Below, in pieces: positions 7,617-20,014 of a stretch of DNA of 20,080 nt; within the stretch, counting starts at the first letter, position 1, and every line of letters begins with the position of its first letter. The DNA is taken from IMG/VR virus record IMGVR_UViG_3300007345_000407, positions 1 through 20,080 of that record. One strand, written 5' to 3'. The DNA is from a virus. The translations under genes and the position numbers were made by a program. The notes beneath the pieces are model-generated. The model had not been told where the DNA came from. It did no database searches and was given only the letters and a program-made list of their open reading frames with translations.

Positions 7617-7901
7617 TTATACTGGTGATATTAATATAGATGCTGCTGCTATAAAAGTATCAAAATCTGAGTAAGGTGTTGTTCCATCTGTCCAATCTGT
7701 AACTAAGGCTGGTGATTTTAAAGTTCTACCTAGTTCATTTCTAGACTTTAATCCTATTCTTATTTTATCTTCGTTGATTACTCCGGAAGAGTTTTTTTCA
7801 ACAGAATCGTAGTAAAAAGAGTATAGTCCCTTCTCATAATCTAATCCATCTAAATTAAAGTAGGCTGTAGCATTGTTAGTACTTGCTTTTATTGCTGGCA
7901 T
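7617..7901 (-). CDS. Stand-alone virion anchor module (paralogue of two larger proteins)
   Basis: 94 residues, MPAIKASTNNATAYFNLDG... to ...ISPV. Almost the whole protein matches the N-terminal ~92 residues of the 258- and 290-residue proteins upstream: KAS(T/I)NN, LDGLDYEKG(L/M/V)Y, YYDSVE, I(R/V)xGx(K/R)S, and TDWTDGTTPYSDFDT. It lacks any C-terminal effector part. It could be a minor virion subunit, a competitor or spacer for the shared attachment site, or what remains after loss of an appendage. No frameshift is visible at the C-terminus. A good promoter (-33 TTG, 19 bases, -7 TATCTTTG) lies 29 bases upstream of the ATG. Confidence 0.75.
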   Translation of the reverse strand: MPAIKASTNNATAYFNLDGLDYEKGLYSFYYDSVEKNSSGVINEDKIRIGLKSRNELGRTLKSPALVTDWTDGTTPYSDFDTFIAAASILISPV

Positions 7902-9832: not shown

Positions 9833-10705
9833 CTAAACTCTTGTTCCTATTAGCCAAACAACTAACCCCGTCTCATCTGCTCCACCTGTAACTGCATCAA
9901 AGTCAATTGTTATCTCTGCATCATCAGCTAAAGATGAATCAGATATTACTGCTGGTACGGCCGCTGTAGTTGAAGTCTTCTCTGTGTTATCTATGGTTAG
10001 TTTAGTACTTAGTACAGATGTTCCAGACTCATTTATATCTACCGTAGTTGTTCCTGATGTAGATCCTGCCCCTGTTAGGTTTGCTCTAACCTCAGTTAAA
10101 GTTAGTGCATAAGGCATCCTAAAGGTAACCTTAGCTGTTCCAGTAGTTAAAGCCGTAGTTTCATCACTACAAGCTACCCCTATAGCTACGGTTTCATTAA
10201 CTAAGGCTTCTAATTGGTCTGCTATTGCATTTCTATCTGATACCCAATCTGAACCACTCCATACATACCATCCTGCAGGGTAATAATTACCTAAACTAAT
10301 TGCAGATAACCAAGCTGTACCTTGTGATTCCCTTACGTAAGCTAAATCTCCTGCTGTATCTCCGTCGTCTAAGGCTGCGTAGTTAAGGACGTTTTGAGTT
10401 ATTGATAATCCTTGAGCTGTTACCGGCCCTACTATAAGAGTAGATATATCAGCTATTAAGGTATCAAAATCTGAGTAAGGTGTAGTTCCATCTGTCCAGT
10501 TTGTAACTAGTTTTGGTCTAACTAGAACCCTGTTAAATTCGGATTTAGATCTTATACCAACCCTTATTACACTCTCGTTTATTTCTTTAGCAGTATTTAT
10601 TTCTACGGAATCATAGTAAAGAGTATACACACCCTTTTCATAATCTAGGCCGTCTAGGTAGAAAAATCTATCTGCGTTATTTATACTCGCTTTTATTGTT
10701 GGCAT
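9833..10705 (-). CDS. Virion appendage protein: shared anchor module plus unique C-terminal domain
   Basis: 290 residues. Residues 1-92 (MPTIKASINNADRFFYLDG..., TNWTDGTTPYSDFDTLIAD) are the anchor module shared with the 94- and 258-residue proteins. Residues ~95-165 (LNYAALDDGD..., GTAWLSAISLGNYYPAGWYVWSGSDWV) look like a linker or needle-type segment. The end (about 180-290: TFRMPYALTLTEVRANLTGAG, VDINESGTSVLS, EITIDFDAV, GLVVWLIGTRV) is a beta-rich domain met in many phage tail proteins. It probably forms a host-facing spike attached through the common module. It is 11 bases after the 155-residue gene and directly before the LamG gene. Confidence 0.75.
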   Translation of the reverse strand: MPTIKASINNADRFFYLDGLDYEKGVYTLYYDSVEINTAKEINESVIRVGIRSKSEFNRVLVRPKLVTNWTDGTTPYSDFDTLIADISTLIVGPVTAQGLSITQNVLNYAALDDGDTAGDLAYVRESQGTAWLSAISLGNYYPAGWYVWSGSDWVSDRNAIADQLEALVNETVAIGVACSDETTALTTGTAKVTFRMPYALTLTEVRANLTGAGSTSGTTTVDINESGTSVLSTKLTIDNTEKTSTTAAVPAVISDSSLADDAEITIDFDAVTGGADETGLVVWLIGTRV

Positions 10706-11187: not shown

Positions 11188-11964
11188 TTAATCTATTGAG
11201 CATTTTAGCCTCATACTAGAAGGCGTTACATTATTAATGCTTGATGCAATAAAAAATACATAAATTAAATCTTTATCTGTAATACTTGTTATTGTAAAGT
11301 CTGTATCAACTAAATCAAAATATCCATCTGTACCAATCGTTACTGAATTATTTTCGTATAAAATATTTATAGAATCTATTACTGTATGATTACTTGAAAG
11401 CCTGACCTTTGCTATTGATATGCCAGTGATCTTATCTACATTCACTCCAAATTGAAACCTCATTGAATTTATTGTCTGATTACCAACCGCAACGCCTATT
11501 GGTTTTGCAGTTATTAATTTAATAGAGGAAACAGTAGCCATAGATGCGGTGTTAGCTACACTCATCCACGTATTGTATTCACTCATCGCAAGAGTGGAGG
11601 AACTACCATACCACCAAACATCTGCAGTCGCAACATCTACAAGAAAATCTTGCTCATAAACCTGATACTCCGTACCACCACTAGCTGCTGCTATAAGGGT
11701 AGAGACATCTGCTATAAGTGTATCAAAATCAGAGTAAGCTGTAGTTCCATCTGTCCAGTCAGTAATTAATTTAGGAAGGACTAAATTTCTATCTATCTCT
11801 ACTTTAGACTTTAATCCTACTCGTATTTTTGTTTCATCTATTACTCCAGATGTATTCTTCTCTACGCTATCATAGTATAAGGAGTACATCCCTTTTTCAT
11901 AATCTAATCCATCTAGGTTAAAGTAACTAGTTGAATTATTTGTGCTTGCTTTTATTGCTGGCAT
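11188..11964 (-). CDS. Virion appendage protein: shared anchor module plus different C-terminal domain
   Basis: 258 residues. Residues 1-93 (MPAIKASTNNSTSYFNLDG..., TDWTDGTTAYSDFDTLIAD) are nearly identical to the 94-residue protein and close to the 290-residue one. The C-terminal part from ~97 (GGTEYQVYEQDFLVDVATADVWW...) is unrelated to the other two and beta-rich, with Trp residues and a final MRLKCSID. Same anchor with different ends is the pattern of modular receptor-binding proteins. The leader (AAATAAAACAACAACGATAAACT) is A-rich; the gene follows the basic 97-residue gene by 17 bases and probably shares its promoter at 12298-12305. Confidence 0.75.
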   Translation of the reverse strand: MPAIKASTNNSTSYFNLDGLDYEKGMYSLYYDSVEKNTSGVIDETKIRVGLKSKVEIDRNLVLPKLITDWTDGTTAYSDFDTLIADVSTLIAAASGGTEYQVYEQDFLVDVATADVWWYGSSSTLAMSEYNTWMSVANTASMATVSSIKLITAKPIGVAVGNQTINSMRFQFGVNVDKITGISIAKVRLSSNHTVIDSINILYENNSVTIGTDGYFDLVDTDFTITSITDKDLIYVFFIASSINNVTPSSMRLKCSID

Positions 11965-12297: not shown

Positions 12298-12305
12298 CAA
12301 ATATA
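12298..12305 (-). promoter_or_regulatory. Promoter -7 box (TTTTTCGTATATTTG type)
   Basis: Minus strand TATATTTG preceded by a T-rich run ending CG, the same extended box as at 18789 and 18278. It lies 22 bases upstream of the basic protein ATG. No -33 TTG is visible at 19-21 bases, where the terminator of the previous gene sits instead. Confidence 0.65.
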
Positions 12306-12306
12306 C

Positions 12307-12341
12307 GAAAAAAATAAAGGGGGACTTTTAAGGGTTCCCCT
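12307..12341 (-). terminator. Intrinsic terminator overlapping the end of the winged-helix gene
   Basis: Minus strand GGGGA (12340-12336), an 11-base loop, TCCCC, then C and a T-rich tract with one A. The TAA stop of the 186-residue gene (12330-12328) lies inside the hairpin loop, and the T-tract doubles as the upstream part of the next promoter. Confidence 0.65.
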
Positions 12342-12896: not shown

Positions 12897-12927
12897 CAAA
12901 GATACGTAAAATAATTGGAACTCACAA
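12897..12927 (-). promoter_or_regulatory. Promoter giving a near-leaderless mRNA
   Basis: Minus strand TTG at 12927-12925, a 20-base spacer, TATCTTTG at 12904-12897. The ATG of the winged-helix gene starts at 12888, eight bases after the box, so the expected 5' leader is only a few bases. The -33 TTG is also the end of the hairpin at 12925-12956. Confidence 0.65.
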
Positions 12928-15014: not shown

Positions 15015-16763
15015 TTATACTCCACAAGTTCCTCCACCTGATATATCACAGATATCATGAAACTCCTCTTTAAATTCTTTTCCTTCGTGTGCTATAGCCT
15101 CATTATAAGGTATAGACGTAATTGGCTGTCCTCCTCTGGCTCCATCTGGATAACAGGTAAATCCTCTTATCCTATGTGCATAACTAAGAAGAGTCTTAGC
15201 AAACTTATACACCCTTGTTTCATTGTTTAACTCTGTCCCCCAAGGAGTTATGTTAATAGTAGAAGAAATAGACATATCTACGTAATCTTGTATATCTGCT
15301 TGAAACTTAATTCTTCTCTCTGGGTTACCAGCTAAGTCTACTGCAGACTCTATAGCCTCTGGATCTATACCTGTGTCTATAAGTGTCTGGGCCATACCAT
15401 CTACTACATATTGAAAATGCCAGTTATGTTGTCCTTTAAGATATCTTCTTTTGTAAGCTACTGCAAATAGTGGCTCGATTCCCGTAGAAGTCGCTGCCAA
15501 AATACCTATTGTACCAGTAGGAGCTATAGCTCTGTAAGCTACCGGTTGGTTTATTTTAAGGGTCTTTGCAAGGGCGTTTGCTGATGTCTCAGAATGGTCT
15601 TTATAAACTTGTAACCACTGCTTTAGCTCATCGTTAACATTGTAATTATAACCTCTTTTTAAAAGCCACTCGTGTACTCCCATAAGACCTAATCCTAATC
15701 TACGATTCTTCTCTCGTACCTCTTCTACTTTCTTGTACGGTAACTTTGCTTTTAAAGTTCCGCACAGTAAGAACTCACTGGCTAACTCTACTACTTCTTT
15801 AAACTCCTCTAGGGATTCTATACGTGACATATTTACAGAGCCTAAGTTACAAACATCACTATCATCTTCTGATGTGACCTCTGTACAAGCATTTCTAAGG
15901 GTCTCATTCTCCTTGTCAAAGAAGTTAAAAGAGAATCCCGGCTCCCCTGTTTTAAGGGCTTGTCTTACGTTTTCTATAAACACACTTGGTATGTACTTAA
16001 ATGGTAGGCTCTCACCTTTGTCTGCAGCCTTTTTTATCTCTACTATTGGCATGTCATATACTGTCTCTAAAAAATGATTGTCATAGTTAAGTGATATGTT
16101 TGTCATGTCTAACGGAGCAGGGTAATTAAAGTCCTTTTCTTTGAGTAAACCAATGGTTAGGTTTTTACCGTTATCATCGTAGGCTCCAGATACAGGCATG
16201 TTATACCAATCCTTTGCGTGTAGAAACTCGTTTATATCTCCGTGTCTCCAGTTTAGTGAGCCATAAATAGCACTACGTCTAGAACCACCTTGCATAACGT
16301 TCCTACCTATTTCATTTATCATCTTCATCTTAGGTATTACTCCAGAGGCTTCTCCACCAGTCTTTTTAATGATAGATCCTGCAGGTCTATATATACTGTA
16401 GTCATTACCTATACCTCCACCTGTCATAAGACAAGTCTCAGCCTTCCAAGATAGGTTAGCCCAGTCTTCTCTAGTGTCTTCAAGAGATCTAAGTAGGTAA
16501 CAGTTGTTAAAGAACTTGTTTGGTCTACCTGCGTAATATAGATATCTACCACCGGGTATAAACTTCATGGTTGCAATAAATCCTTCTAGCTTCTTTCTTC
16601 TCTCAGGAGAGAGTTTACCTTTACATACGTCCTCTACAAGAGTGTGGGAGAGTTCCTCCCAAGTCTGTGCTCCCTCGTGAGCATACTTTTGTTTGAAAAT
16701 ATCGTAACCAAGTTGTGTTCTAAATGGTTGTGGGTAGTTTGTGTTGTTGTTTTCTTCTGTCAT
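15015..16763 (-). CDS. nrdJ: Class II (adenosylcobalamin-dependent) ribonucleotide reductase
   Basis: 582 residues. It turns ribonucleotides into deoxyribonucleotides for phage DNA synthesis. Visible marks: NNCYLLRS with Cys88 (redox cysteine), TGGGIGNDYS (114-123), GGSRRSA (159-165), NACTEV with the N-x-C-x-E radical site (Asn291, Cys293, Glu295), CNLGSVNMSR with Cys305 (partner of Cys88), RRLGLGLMGVHEWL, APTGTIGILAATSTGIEP (phosphate loop), and a C-terminal pair Cys572/Cys580 (CDISGGGTCGV) for thioredoxin-type re-reduction. There is no R2 (NrdB) gene nor NrdD/NrdG-type activase nearby, and the length and lack of a long ATP-cone favour class II over class I. The ATG directly follows the stop of the 66-residue gene. 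Class assignment is inferred from sequence pattern. Confidence 0.88.
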   Translation of the reverse strand: MTEENNNTNYPQPFRTQLGYDIFKQKYAHEGAQTWEELSHTLVEDVCKGKLSPERRKKLEGFIATMKFIPGGRYLYYAGRPNKFFNNCYLLRSLEDTREDWANLSWKAETCLMTGGGIGNDYSIYRPAGSIIKKTGGEASGVIPKMKMINEIGRNVMQGGSRRSAIYGSLNWRHGDINEFLHAKDWYNMPVSGAYDDNGKNLTIGLLKEKDFNYPAPLDMTNISLNYDNHFLETVYDMPIVEIKKAADKGESLPFKYIPSVFIENVRQALKTGEPGFSFNFFDKENETLRNACTEVTSEDDSDVCNLGSVNMSRIESLEEFKEVVELASEFLLCGTLKAKLPYKKVEEVREKNRRLGLGLMGVHEWLLKRGYNYNVNDELKQWLQVYKDHSETSANALAKTLKINQPVAYRAIAPTGTIGILAATSTGIEPLFAVAYKRRYLKGQHNWHFQYVVDGMAQTLIDTGIDPEAIESAVDLAGNPERRIKFQADIQDYVDMSISSTINITPWGTELNNETRVYKFAKTLLSYAHRIRGFTCYPDGARGGQPITSIPYNEAIAHEGKEFKEEFHDICDISGGGTCGV

Positions 16764-16964
16764 TTAATTAAGTATTATTTCATTTCTAGGATCTTTAATA
16801 ACACACCCAAGTTCTTTTTCACCAAGCATATACTTCATTAAATCCTTATCTGAGATATACCCCAGTTTGTTTTGTAGTAAATATCCTTCAAACTCTCTGT
16901 GATTTTCTTCTCTTTCTCTCTCCCTTATTAAATCATTTAAGATTCTTTCTCTGTTATAGTTCAT
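16764..16964 (-). CDS. Small charged hypothetical protein
   Basis: 66 residues, very rich in Arg and Glu at the start (MNYNRERILNDLIREREREENHREFEGYLL), then KLGYISDKDLMKYMLGEKELG. It looks helical throughout with no membrane segment. Its start overlaps the recombinase stop (ATGA) and its stop abuts the reductase ATG, so it is part of the same translational chain. No family is recognised; a helper or regulator of either neighbour is possible. Confidence 0.55.
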   Translation of the reverse strand: MNYNRERILNDLIREREREENHREFEGYLLQNKLGYISDKDLMKYMLGEKELGCVIKDPRNEIILN

Positions 16965-17710
16965 AATTTTTTTATCTCTCGTTTATATAATTCCAGTAGG
17001 TTCTTTACCTGCGTAGATCCAAAAGTCTTCCCTGTTGAGGTCAAAAACCCGTTGTCATTTAAAAACTCAGCCATTTTACTAATAGAAGAGTCTTCTTTCA
17101 TTAATCTAAGCACTGAAATAGCCCTTTTGTTGTTAGGGTTGTTAAGAGCCTTCTCTAATCGGGTGTTCATTGACTTATCTCTTCCTTTTTGGCTTAGATT
17201 ATTAAGTGGTGAGCCTAGTGCAGTGATTGTGTTACCAGCTTTTGATACATGGTATCCATTTTTCTCTATGTTTGACTTTATTTCTGCTAGGGCGTCCTTA
17301 ACTCTCTTTTTTGTCTTGTCTCTTTCCTCTTTTGCAACTAAAAACTTGATGTTCTTAGAGAATGCAGAGTCGTGAGGTGCATCGGCTTCAATGAATGGTA
17401 CCCCTTGTTCCTCGAGTAAAGCGATGGTCATAAATCCGGATCTAGAGAGTCTATCTACCTTGTGTACAAGGAGAGTTGAGTTTGTCCCCTTTGCCAAATC
17501 CACTGCTTCGTTGAATAATATTCTGTTTAGTGACCCTCCTGAGATAATTTCAGTAAATTCCTTGACTACTGTGCCTCCAAAGTTGGTTATAAACCTATCT
17601 ACTGCAGTTTTTTGAGCGTCAAGGCCTAATCCATCTCTTTGGGATTCTGTGGAGGCTCTATAGTACACTACGTACTTCTCCGCTTCTTGTGGTCTAAATT
17701 TTGGACTCAT
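16961..17710 (-). CDS. Serine recombinase (resolvase/invertase family)
   Basis: 249 residues. The N-terminal catalytic domain is clear: VVYYRASTESQ with Arg18 and nucleophile Ser20, GLGLDAQ, a strand followed by GG, TLLVHKVDRLSRSG with Asp86, Arg87 and Arg90, and VPFIEAD; KEERDKTKKRVKDAL resembles the long dimer helix. Instead of the large zinc-ribbon part of serine integrases, the C-terminus is ~100 residues with SISKMAEFLNDNGFLTSTGKTFGSTQVKNLL, which resembles the DNA-binding 'Recombinase' region. It acts on DNA by double-strand cleavage and rotation; the site is unknown. Its place within a metabolism operon, between an HExxH gene (TAATG overlap) and a tiny gene, is unusual for an integrase. 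Resolution of replicated genomes or DNA inversion are alternatives. Confidence 0.85.
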   Translation of the reverse strand: MSPKFRPQEAEKYVVYYRASTESQRDGLGLDAQKTAVDRFITNFGGTVVKEFTEIISGGSLNRILFNEAVDLAKGTNSTLLVHKVDRLSRSGFMTIALLEEQGVPFIEADAPHDSAFSKNIKFLVAKEERDKTKKRVKDALAEIKSNIEKNGYHVSKAGNTITALGSPLNNLSQKGRDKSMNTRLEKALNNPNNKRAISVLRLMKEDSSISKMAEFLNDNGFLTSTGKTFGSTQVKNLLELYKREIKKL

Positions 17711-18277: not shown

Positions 18278-18309
18278 CAAACATACGAAAAAAAAATGAC
18301 ACTACCAAA
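18278..18309 (-). promoter_or_regulatory. Promoter of the metabolism operon, interleaved with a terminator
   Basis: Minus strand TTTG at 18309-18306, 20-base spacer, TATGTTTG at 18285-18278. The -33 TTTG is in the loop of the terminator at 18288-18322, and the terminator stem and T-tract make the spacer. The first ATG is at 18253. Confidence 0.65.
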
Positions 18310-18322
18310 TGTTATAGTGTCA
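18288..18322 (-). terminator. Intrinsic terminator of the RNA gene
   Basis: Minus strand TGACACTA (18322-18315), a 10-base loop, TAGTGTCA (18304-18297), then nine T (18296-18288). The eight-base stem is perfect and the T-tract immediate, which makes this the clearest terminator in the window. Confidence 0.85.
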
Positions 18323-18780
18323 AATTTATCTTTTTTTTCTTCTTTTTTCTATTACTTAGGGTATAGATACAACATTACCCTCTAAGCATCTTTTAATAGT
18401 CGCTCTAAATAAAGAACTAAACCAGATTAAAAGAGAGTACTCTTTATACTATATAGCTATAACTACATAATATTTTAGCTACTACACCTTACAGAAGCAT
18501 TACTCTCTGCGAGCCCTATCCGAAAACCAGATTTCTCTGGAAAAGATGCCTTGAGGGTAAGAGTTGTCAGTTGTGGACATTGCTCTCTTTAGACTCGATG
18601 CGTTTGACTGTATTTAATCAGTATCTTCACACTATTTTATTTATGGGGCATCTCGAACCCCCGTGAATTGTGATTAATGTTGTTTATGTCTTCTATTTAT
18701 AAAGGTATTCAATCTGTAACATTGGTGAGGTACAGCCTTGTTTGGAGTTTAAAAATAGAAAAAATACTCCTGTGTTTTAT
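18323..18780 (-). ncRNA. Putative structured non-coding RNA of unknown class
   Basis: No reading frame fills these ~460 bases, yet they have their own promoter (18789-18796) and terminator (18288-18322). Minus-strand helices seen by eye: 18560-18541 with 18394-18375 (20 positions: 18 Watson-Crick, one G-U, one A-A), extended by ACAAC 18567-18563 with GTTGT 18373-18369; CCAGA-GAAA-TCTGG (18540-18527), a GNRA-capped hairpin directly on that helix; AGAGAGTA 18508-18501 with TACTCTCT 18439-18432; TAGCTA 18481-18476 with TAGCTA 18459-18454. The 5' part has GGAGT/ACTCC (18770-18744), CTGTA/TACAG (18735-18714) and a T-arm-like GGGGGTTCGAGATGCCCC (18662-18645). It is not a tRNA (no acceptor stem) nor a normal tmRNA (no tag frame). 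It might belong with large ornate phage RNAs such as ROOL or GOLLD, but I cannot show homology. Confidence 0.65.
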
Positions 18781-18788
18781 TATGTGTG

Positions 18789-18796
18789 CAAATATA
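18789..18796 (-). promoter_or_regulatory. Promoter -7 box of the non-coding RNA gene
   Basis: Minus strand TATATTTG preceded by TTTTTCG, the extended box shared with three other sites here. Expected start is near 18780. No reading frame follows it for almost 500 bases. A -33 TTG is not evident (GTTAAA is at shorter spacing). Confidence 0.65.
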
Positions 18797-18853
18797 CGAA
18801 AAATATATTTAACATTATTTAGGGTTAAAGCTTTGATAATGAGCTAAAACTGT

Positions 18854-18885
18854 AAAAACCGATGTAAAGCAAACTTTACATTTCG
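18854..18885 (-). terminator. Intrinsic terminator of the first small-gene operon
   Basis: Minus strand CCGAA-ATGTAAAG, loop TTTG, CTTTACAT-CGG, then TTTTT (18858-18854). The inner stem (18862-18881) is eight perfect pairs and extends by CCG/CGG past a small bulge. It lies 16 bases after the 49-residue ORF. Confidence 0.8.
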
Positions 18886-18900
18886 GCAGATTTAGGAGTT

Positions 18901-19982: not shown

Positions 19983-20014
19983 CGAATATACGAAAAATAA
20001 TCAAGACTACCAAA
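19983..20014 (-). promoter_or_regulatory. Promoter of the first small-gene operon
   Basis: Minus strand TTTG at 20014-20011, 20-base spacer, TATATTCG at 19990-19983 (one mismatch to TAnnTTTG). The sequence TTTGGTAGT...TTTTTCGTAT is shared with the promoter at 18278-18309, including the spacing. Confidence 0.55.

What the first reader, a model, noticed from the sequence alone, without database searches (positions are those of the whole stretch)
18288..18796. Free-standing structured RNA gene of unknown class in a flavobacterial phage
The sequence shows a ~500-base unit with promoter, no reading frame, nested long-range complementarity (one helix of 20 positions with a single mismatch, a GAAA-capped hairpin stacked on it, an eight-base inner helix) and a perfect terminator. 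Phages rarely keep this much non-coding sequence, so it should be functional. Large ornate RNAs (ROOL, GOLLD) are known from phages, but this one is shorter and I cannot match it to them or to 6S, tmRNA or RNase P.
Basis: partly seen in the sequence, partly recalled or inferred. Interest (0 to 1): 0.85.

Follow-up and report, generated by a model that had tools for sequence, protein, structure and literature searches.

The report
Phage RNA gene, no known family
A virus of marine flavobacteria appears to carry a gene for a roughly 490-letter folded RNA that makes no protein, and related viruses keep an RNA gene of the same build at a comparable genome spot, which points to an undescribed kind of viral RNA whose job is still unknown.

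Summary
On the minus strand, a phage-type promoter (18803-18789) starts a ~490-nt unit with no reading frame above 26 aa, ended by a 9-bp hairpin plus nine T (18322-18297). It folds far better than shuffles (z -4.6) and no shuffle gives a helix as good as the 20-position one. No Rfam family matches.

The phage is a relative of Cellulophaga phage phi38:1 (Pervagoviridae). Six other lineages of this group have a ~350-500-nt non-coding unit with the same promoter type in the same neighbourhood, between the tRNA array (where there is one) and the serine recombinase. In two of them (L109, L170) the RNA is clearly homologous, with 9 compensatory pair changes in 29 pairs. In phi38:1 versus Calle it changes four times more slowly than third codon positions.

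The window's own RNA has only weak, correctly stranded similarity to the RNAs of L173 and phi38:1, matches neither covariance model, and lies in the opposite orientation relative to the recombinase. Membership of one family is therefore likely, not proven.

Best reading: a trans-acting structured phage RNA of an undescribed family, comparable in context to GOLLD and ROOL. Its biochemical role is inferred only.

The parts
18854..18886 (-). terminator-like hairpin of the upstream operon (CCGAAATGTAAAG-TTTG-CTTTACATCGG-TTTTT)
   Evidence: read from the sequence; has a small bulge and was not flagged by the simple scan
18789..18803 (-). promoter of the RNA gene, TTTTTCGTATATTTG (Bacteroidetes-type -7 element TAnnTTTG); its -33 region is weak
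   Evidence: same motif before other operons of the window at 12298-12312, 18278-18292 and, with one mismatch, 19983-19997
18297..18783 (-). proposed non-coding RNA, about 490 nt (start inferred from the promoter)
   Evidence: no ORF above 26 aa; fold z -4.6; no Rfam family
18689..18762 (-). 5' domain: 10-bp helix 18753-18762 with 18689-18698, enclosing hairpin 18714-18735
   Evidence: pair probabilities 0.84 and 0.97; phi38:1 RNA has a similar 10-bp 5' helix enclosing a hairpin
18645..18661 (-). GGGGU-UCGAGAU-GCCCC hairpin
   Evidence: pair probability 0.96
18541..18560 (-). 5' arm of the 20-position helix
   Evidence: significance
18527..18540 (-). GAAA-capped hairpin stacked inside the long helix
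   Evidence: pair probability 0.95
18501..18508 (-). one side of the eight-base inner complementarity (AGAGAGTA), partner 18432-18439
   Evidence: sequence; competes with local hairpins in the predicted fold
18430..18473 (-). two adjacent local hairpins (12 bp and 6 bp)
   Evidence: pair probabilities 0.97 and 0.90
18375..18394 (-). 3' arm of the 20-position helix
18297..18322 (-). intrinsic terminator, 9-bp stem then nine T; its 3' arm overlaps the -33 region of the next promoter
18278..18292 (-). promoter TTTTTCGTATGTTTG of the following operon (not part of the RNA)
16961..17710 (-). neighbouring serine recombinase, used to find the related phages
   Evidence: Pfam Resolvase; 58% identity to phi38:1

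Best explanation
The region is a free-standing gene for a structured non-coding RNA of about 490 nt, made on the minus strand from a standard promoter of this phage and ended by an intrinsic terminator. It is most likely a very diverged representative of an undescribed group of RNAs that Pervagoviridae-like phages keep at one place, near the serine recombinase and next to a large tRNA array in most members. The RNA itself is the product and acts in trans. The most likely role, by context only, is in the phage's translation module (tRNA array; in Calle also tmRNA and RtcB), in the manner of the tRNA-island RNAs GOLLD and ROOL. Shown: unit boundaries by sequence, folding signal, lack of coding, comparable units in relatives, covariation and slow change in relatives. 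Inferred: transcription, common descent of the window's copy with the others, action in trans, any link to translation.
For: Fold z -4.6 and the long helix beyond 400 shuffles. Promoter motif 7 against 0.23 expected and terminator. No ORF. Relatives carry a unit with the same promoter type in the same neighbourhood: phi38:1/Calle, L111/L154, L109, L170, L171, L173. L109 and L170 RNAs are homologous (E 1e-29; CM E 1.5e-9) with 9 of 29 pairs changed on both sides and 98% of cells paired against 29-57% for slid controls. phi38:1 versus Calle: 5/424 changes in the RNA, 11/238 at recombinase codon position 3, 6/125 in the intergenic stretch upstream (Fisher p 0.008 and 0.02). Window RNA against 804 real non-coding segments: L173 ranks above all, phi38:1 has 0-2 above it. 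In the relatives the RNA points away from the recombinase, which argues against a leader role for the group.
Against: Neither covariance model of the L109/L170 5' domain finds the window's RNA, and a model of the window's core finds only itself in 1.24 Mb of related phage DNA. Folding of the phi38:1 RNA is no better than shuffles (z about +1). Window-L173 and window-phi38:1 similarity is only z about 3-4, and the window shows none to L111, L171 or L170. Orientation relative to the recombinase differs. No tRNA genes lie in the 20-kb window. There is no expression evidence.
Confidence: 0.62

Rival explanations
1. It is a real free-standing RNA gene of this phage but unrelated by descent to the RNAs of phi38:1, L173, L109 and L170; a different RNA took the same neighbourhood.
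For: No covariance-model match either way; opposite orientation; similarity to L111, L170 and L171 at background level.
Against: Similarity to L173 and phi38:1 on the correct strand exceeds nearly all real non-coding segments, and both the window and phi38:1 RNAs are predicted to have a 10-bp 5' helix enclosing a hairpin.
Confidence: 0.2
2. It is a regulatory antisense or sponge RNA that pairs with phage or host messages or tRNAs.
For: Free-standing unit in trans; fast sequence change.
Against: The longest complementarity to the rest of the window is 12 nt, equal to shuffled controls; the long-range fold is unusual for a pairing RNA. Host messages and the rest of the phage genome could not be tested.
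Confidence: 0.1
3. It is a long 5' leader or attenuator of the downstream operon (small protein, HExxH protein, recombinase).
For: In the window it lies upstream on the same strand and ends in a terminator.
Against: The downstream gene has its own promoter after the terminator (18292-18278); in the relatives the RNA runs in the opposite direction.
Confidence: 0.04
4. It is a DNA element: the 20-nt inverted repeat around 146 bp, close to an invertase-type serine recombinase, is an invertible segment or recombination site.
For: 20-nt inverted repeat, 90% complementary, about 0.7 kb from a serine recombinase gene.
Against: No promoter motif inside the segment; the arms differ by a mismatch and a G-U-type change; no comparable long inverted repeat stands out among the predicted helices of the relatives' RNAs, though they keep the recombinase; the folding signal is stronger on one strand.
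Confidence: 0.05
5. It is decaying non-functional DNA, for example a former tRNA island.
For: AT-rich; one T-arm-like hairpin (18645-18661).
Against: Intact promoter and terminator, significant fold, and slow change of the corresponding region in phi38:1/Calle.
Confidence: 0.04

Closest known systems
GOLLD RNA
   Same: Large, structured, phage-encoded, free-standing; GOLLD often sits near tRNA islands (PMC12286853), as do most relatives of this RNA.
   Different: Many GOLLD RNAs exceed 800 nt, with a conserved 3' region (PMC12286853); no Rfam match here.
ROOL RNA
   Same: Phage-encoded, often near tRNA islands, extensive predicted fold, function unknown (PMC12286853).
   Different: The ROOL solved in PMC12286853 is 659 nt; no Rfam match here; no assembly data.
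Non-coding units of Cellulophaga phages phi38:1 (record KC821614, 39012-39435, minus) and Calle_1 (MT732432, 30050-30473, plus)
   Same: Comparable place, same promoter motif, similar length, weak sequence similarity on the same strand. Unannotated, apart from a 46-aa CDS on the other strand in phi38:1.
   Different: Runs against the recombinase; predicted fold not better than shuffles.
RNAs of L109, L170 and probably L173 (IMG/VR contigs)
   Same: Same promoter type and comparable place; structured by covariation (L109/L170).
   Different: Four-hairpin 5' domain not found in the window.

Membership tests
GOLLD / ROOL | match to the Rfam covariance models | tested here: not met
   cmscan of the whole window and of 601 bases around the RNA at permissive E-values: none
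GOLLD / ROOL | phage context near a tRNA island | tested here: inconclusive
   tRNA arrays next to the unit in phi38:1, Calle, L111, L170, L173; none in the window, whose contig ends 1.3 kb beyond the RNA
GOLLD / ROOL | homo-oligomeric RNA assembly | not testable with these tools
   needs native gel or cryo-EM
tmRNA | tRNA-like ends and tag reading frame | tested here: not met
   ARAGORN finds none; in Calle the tmRNA is a different gene, 43002-43361
6S RNA (incl. 6S-flavo), RNase P RNA | match to Rfam models | tested here: not met
L109/L170-type RNA of Pervagoviridae-like phages | match to covariance models R1/R2 of the four-hairpin 5' domain | tested here: not met
   best window score 6.1 bits (R1) and 3.1 bits (R2), on the wrong strand
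L109/L170-type RNA of Pervagoviridae-like phages | same promoter motif and genomic neighbourhood upstream of the recombinase | tested here: met
   orientation relative to the recombinase is reversed in the window
phi38:1 / L173-type RNA | sequence similarity above real non-coding background on the same strand | tested here: inconclusive
   ranks 0/804 for L173 and 0-2/804 for phi38:1, z about 3-4; no covarying structure established

The most novel reading that the evidence does not exclude
Pervagoviridae-like phages share an undescribed, extremely fast-evolving family of large structured RNAs at the tRNA-island/recombinase junction. The window carries a re-oriented, ornate member. They would form a further tRNA-island-associated phage RNA class besides GOLLD and ROOL, possibly a structural or ribosome-associated RNA.
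Probability: 0.5. Interest if true: 0.78.

Novelty: new variant of a known kind. Interest (0 to 1): 0.62.

Why it matters
If true, cultured laboratory phages (phi38:1 and Calle on Cellulophaga) already carry a tractable member of an undescribed phage RNA group. The role of large RNAs in phage tRNA islands, open for GOLLD and ROOL, could then be tested by deletion and RNA-seq in a lytic system. It would also show that such RNAs can escape Rfam-style searches because they change sequence so fast.

Tried and rejected
Rfam scans of the window and relatives: only tRNAs and sub-threshold chance hits. blastn of the RNA against annotated phages and 47 related IMG/VR records: no homologue; best pieces are A-rich or promoter elements. 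Exact DNA pattern scan for the GGGG hairpin: none. Scan with the adjacent 87-aa protein: none. RNR-based search returned mostly unrelated phages (apparently a horizontally spread gene). The first alignment against phi38:1 used the wrong strand. A pattern from the L109/L170 hairpin hit L182, which is coding sequence and a chance match. Model R2 on 38 kb gave a chance hit (L109 9701-9830, 16.6 bits) above the expected L173 site (14.0 bits, E 0.18), so L173 membership is not claimed as shown. Searches of 251 genomes of a flavobacterial family with R2 and R3: nothing convincing. Genome-contig scan: two distant relatives, no use. Group I intron, group II intron, retron and CRISPR readings were considered; no Rfam hit, reverse transcriptase or repeat array supports them.

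Full report
WHAT IS THERE. All genes around the region run on the minus strand. Reading that strand, an operon ends at a hairpin-plus-T-run (18886-18854, read). Then comes a promoter TTTTTCGTATATTTG at 18803-18789, about 490 nt without any frame above 26 aa, an intrinsic terminator at 18322-18297, and at once the next promoter TTTTTCGTATGTTTG (18292-18278) for a small gene, an HExxH protein and a serine recombinase. The promoter motif is the phage's own standard: 7 matches with up to 2 mismatches, 0.23 expected. The terminator's 3' arm is also the -33 region of the next promoter, so an operator reading of that inverted repeat cannot be excluded.

STRUCTURE. The minus strand folds at -121 kcal/mol, z -4.6; the plus strand gives -2.6. 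The 20-position helix (18541-18560 with 18375-18394) has one mismatch and one G-U pair, and none of 400 dinucleotide shuffles has a helix this good. It closes a 146-nt core that begins with a CCAGA-GAAA-UCUGG hairpin. No Rfam family matches, and there is no tRNA or tmRNA.

WHICH PHAGE. The window is a 20,080-base virus record. Its recombinase is 58% identical to Cellulophaga phages phi38:1 and Calle (Pervagoviridae), and three further proteins match phi38:1 gp077, gp078 and gp080 in order. No annotated phage matches the window at the DNA level.

RELATED UNITS. In phi38:1 and Calle a 430-nt stretch between tRNA array and recombinase is non-coding and has the promoter TTTGTATATTTG on the strand opposite to the recombinase. 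Annotation is empty there in Calle; phi38:1 has a 46-aa CDS on the other strand. A comparable arrangement appears in L111/L154, L109, L170, L171 and L173; distances to the recombinase vary, and in L109 the unit lies at the contig's edge with other genes in between. tRNA arrays adjoin it in phi38:1, Calle, L111, L170 and L173. L109 and L170 RNAs are 69% identical over 265 nt. A covariance model built from L170 alone finds L109 at E 1.5e-9, and on the resulting alignment 9 of 29 pairs changed on both sides, with 98% of cells paired against 29-57% when partners are slid. That alignment was fitted to the structure, so the count leans towards it; but a free prediction on the pair also gives 12 double changes in 55 pairs. 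L173 shows the same four hairpins by eye, one with a similar 13-nt loop, but its model score (14.0 bits) is not significant alone.

SELECTION. phi38:1 and Calle differ at 5 of 424 positions in the unit, 11 of 238 recombinase third codon positions and 6 of 125 positions of the intergenic stretch upstream of the unit's promoter (Fisher p 0.008 and 0.02). One change turns a GCAA tetraloop into GAAA, keeping the GNRA type.

IS THE WINDOW'S RNA ONE OF THEM? Models R1 and R2 do not find it, and a model of its own core finds only itself in 1.24 Mb. Pairwise alignment on the expected strand against L173 and phi38:1 beats block shuffles (z about 3), 2,500 real segments of like composition (0 and 4-8 better) and 804 non-coding segments (0 and 0-2 better). 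L111, L170 and L171 show no such signal. Both the window and phi38:1 RNAs are predicted to have a 10-bp 5' helix enclosing a hairpin. I judge common descent likely (about 0.6), not shown. The orientation relative to the recombinase is reversed in the window, so either the unit moved or a different RNA took its place.

HOW IT MIGHT WORK. Because the group's members run opposite to the recombinase, and the window's copy ends at a terminator before a new promoter, a cis role is unlikely. No unusual complementarity to the rest of the window was found. The context of large tRNA sets, with tmRNA and RtcB in Calle (PMC8776804), points to the translation module, as for GOLLD and ROOL, which often lie near tRNA islands and form RNA cages of unknown function (PMC12286853). 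This last step is inference (about 0.3).

LIMITS. No expression data were available. The window's helices could not be tested by covariation for want of close homologues. Pairwise similarity tests may retain some compositional bias.

Noticed in passing
window 7617-7901, 9833-10705, 11188-11964: Three direct paralogues share an N-terminal region of about 90 aa (MPAIKAS...; 278-nt repeats 67-72% alike). In L171 and L172 genes with this N-terminus lie on both sides of the serine recombinase in opposite orientation, which suggests a tail-gene inversion switch; no long DNA inverted repeat was found there.
   Followed up: partly
window 12298-12312, 12897-12911, 18278-18292, 18789-18803, 19983-19997: A strong shared promoter motif TTTTTCGTATRTTTG, about 30 times over expectation with up to 2 mismatches; some copies are preceded by TTTGGTAGTCT or similar at -33.
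   Followed up: partly
L082 5349-5489 (phi38:1 gp073): The annotated 46-aa hypothetical protein gp073 lies inside the RNA unit on the other strand and is absent from the Calle annotation; probably spurious.
   Followed up: partly
L170, L111, L173 at the 3' end of the RNA units: The units end in a C-rich stretch (AACCTCCCCCC or similar) after AT-rich TAAGTA-type repeats; it resembles an anti-Shine-Dalgarno sequence but may be chance.
   Followed up: no
L173 6580-6640 and L180 4600-5990: Repeats of the form ACTATAGATAAA-TCTATNGTA near the RNA promoter, unexplained.
   Followed up: no
window 15015-16763: The ribonucleotide reductase is 64-79% identical to those of many apparently unrelated virus contigs, and about 65% to Roseobacter phages, unlike the rest of the genome.
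   Followed up: no
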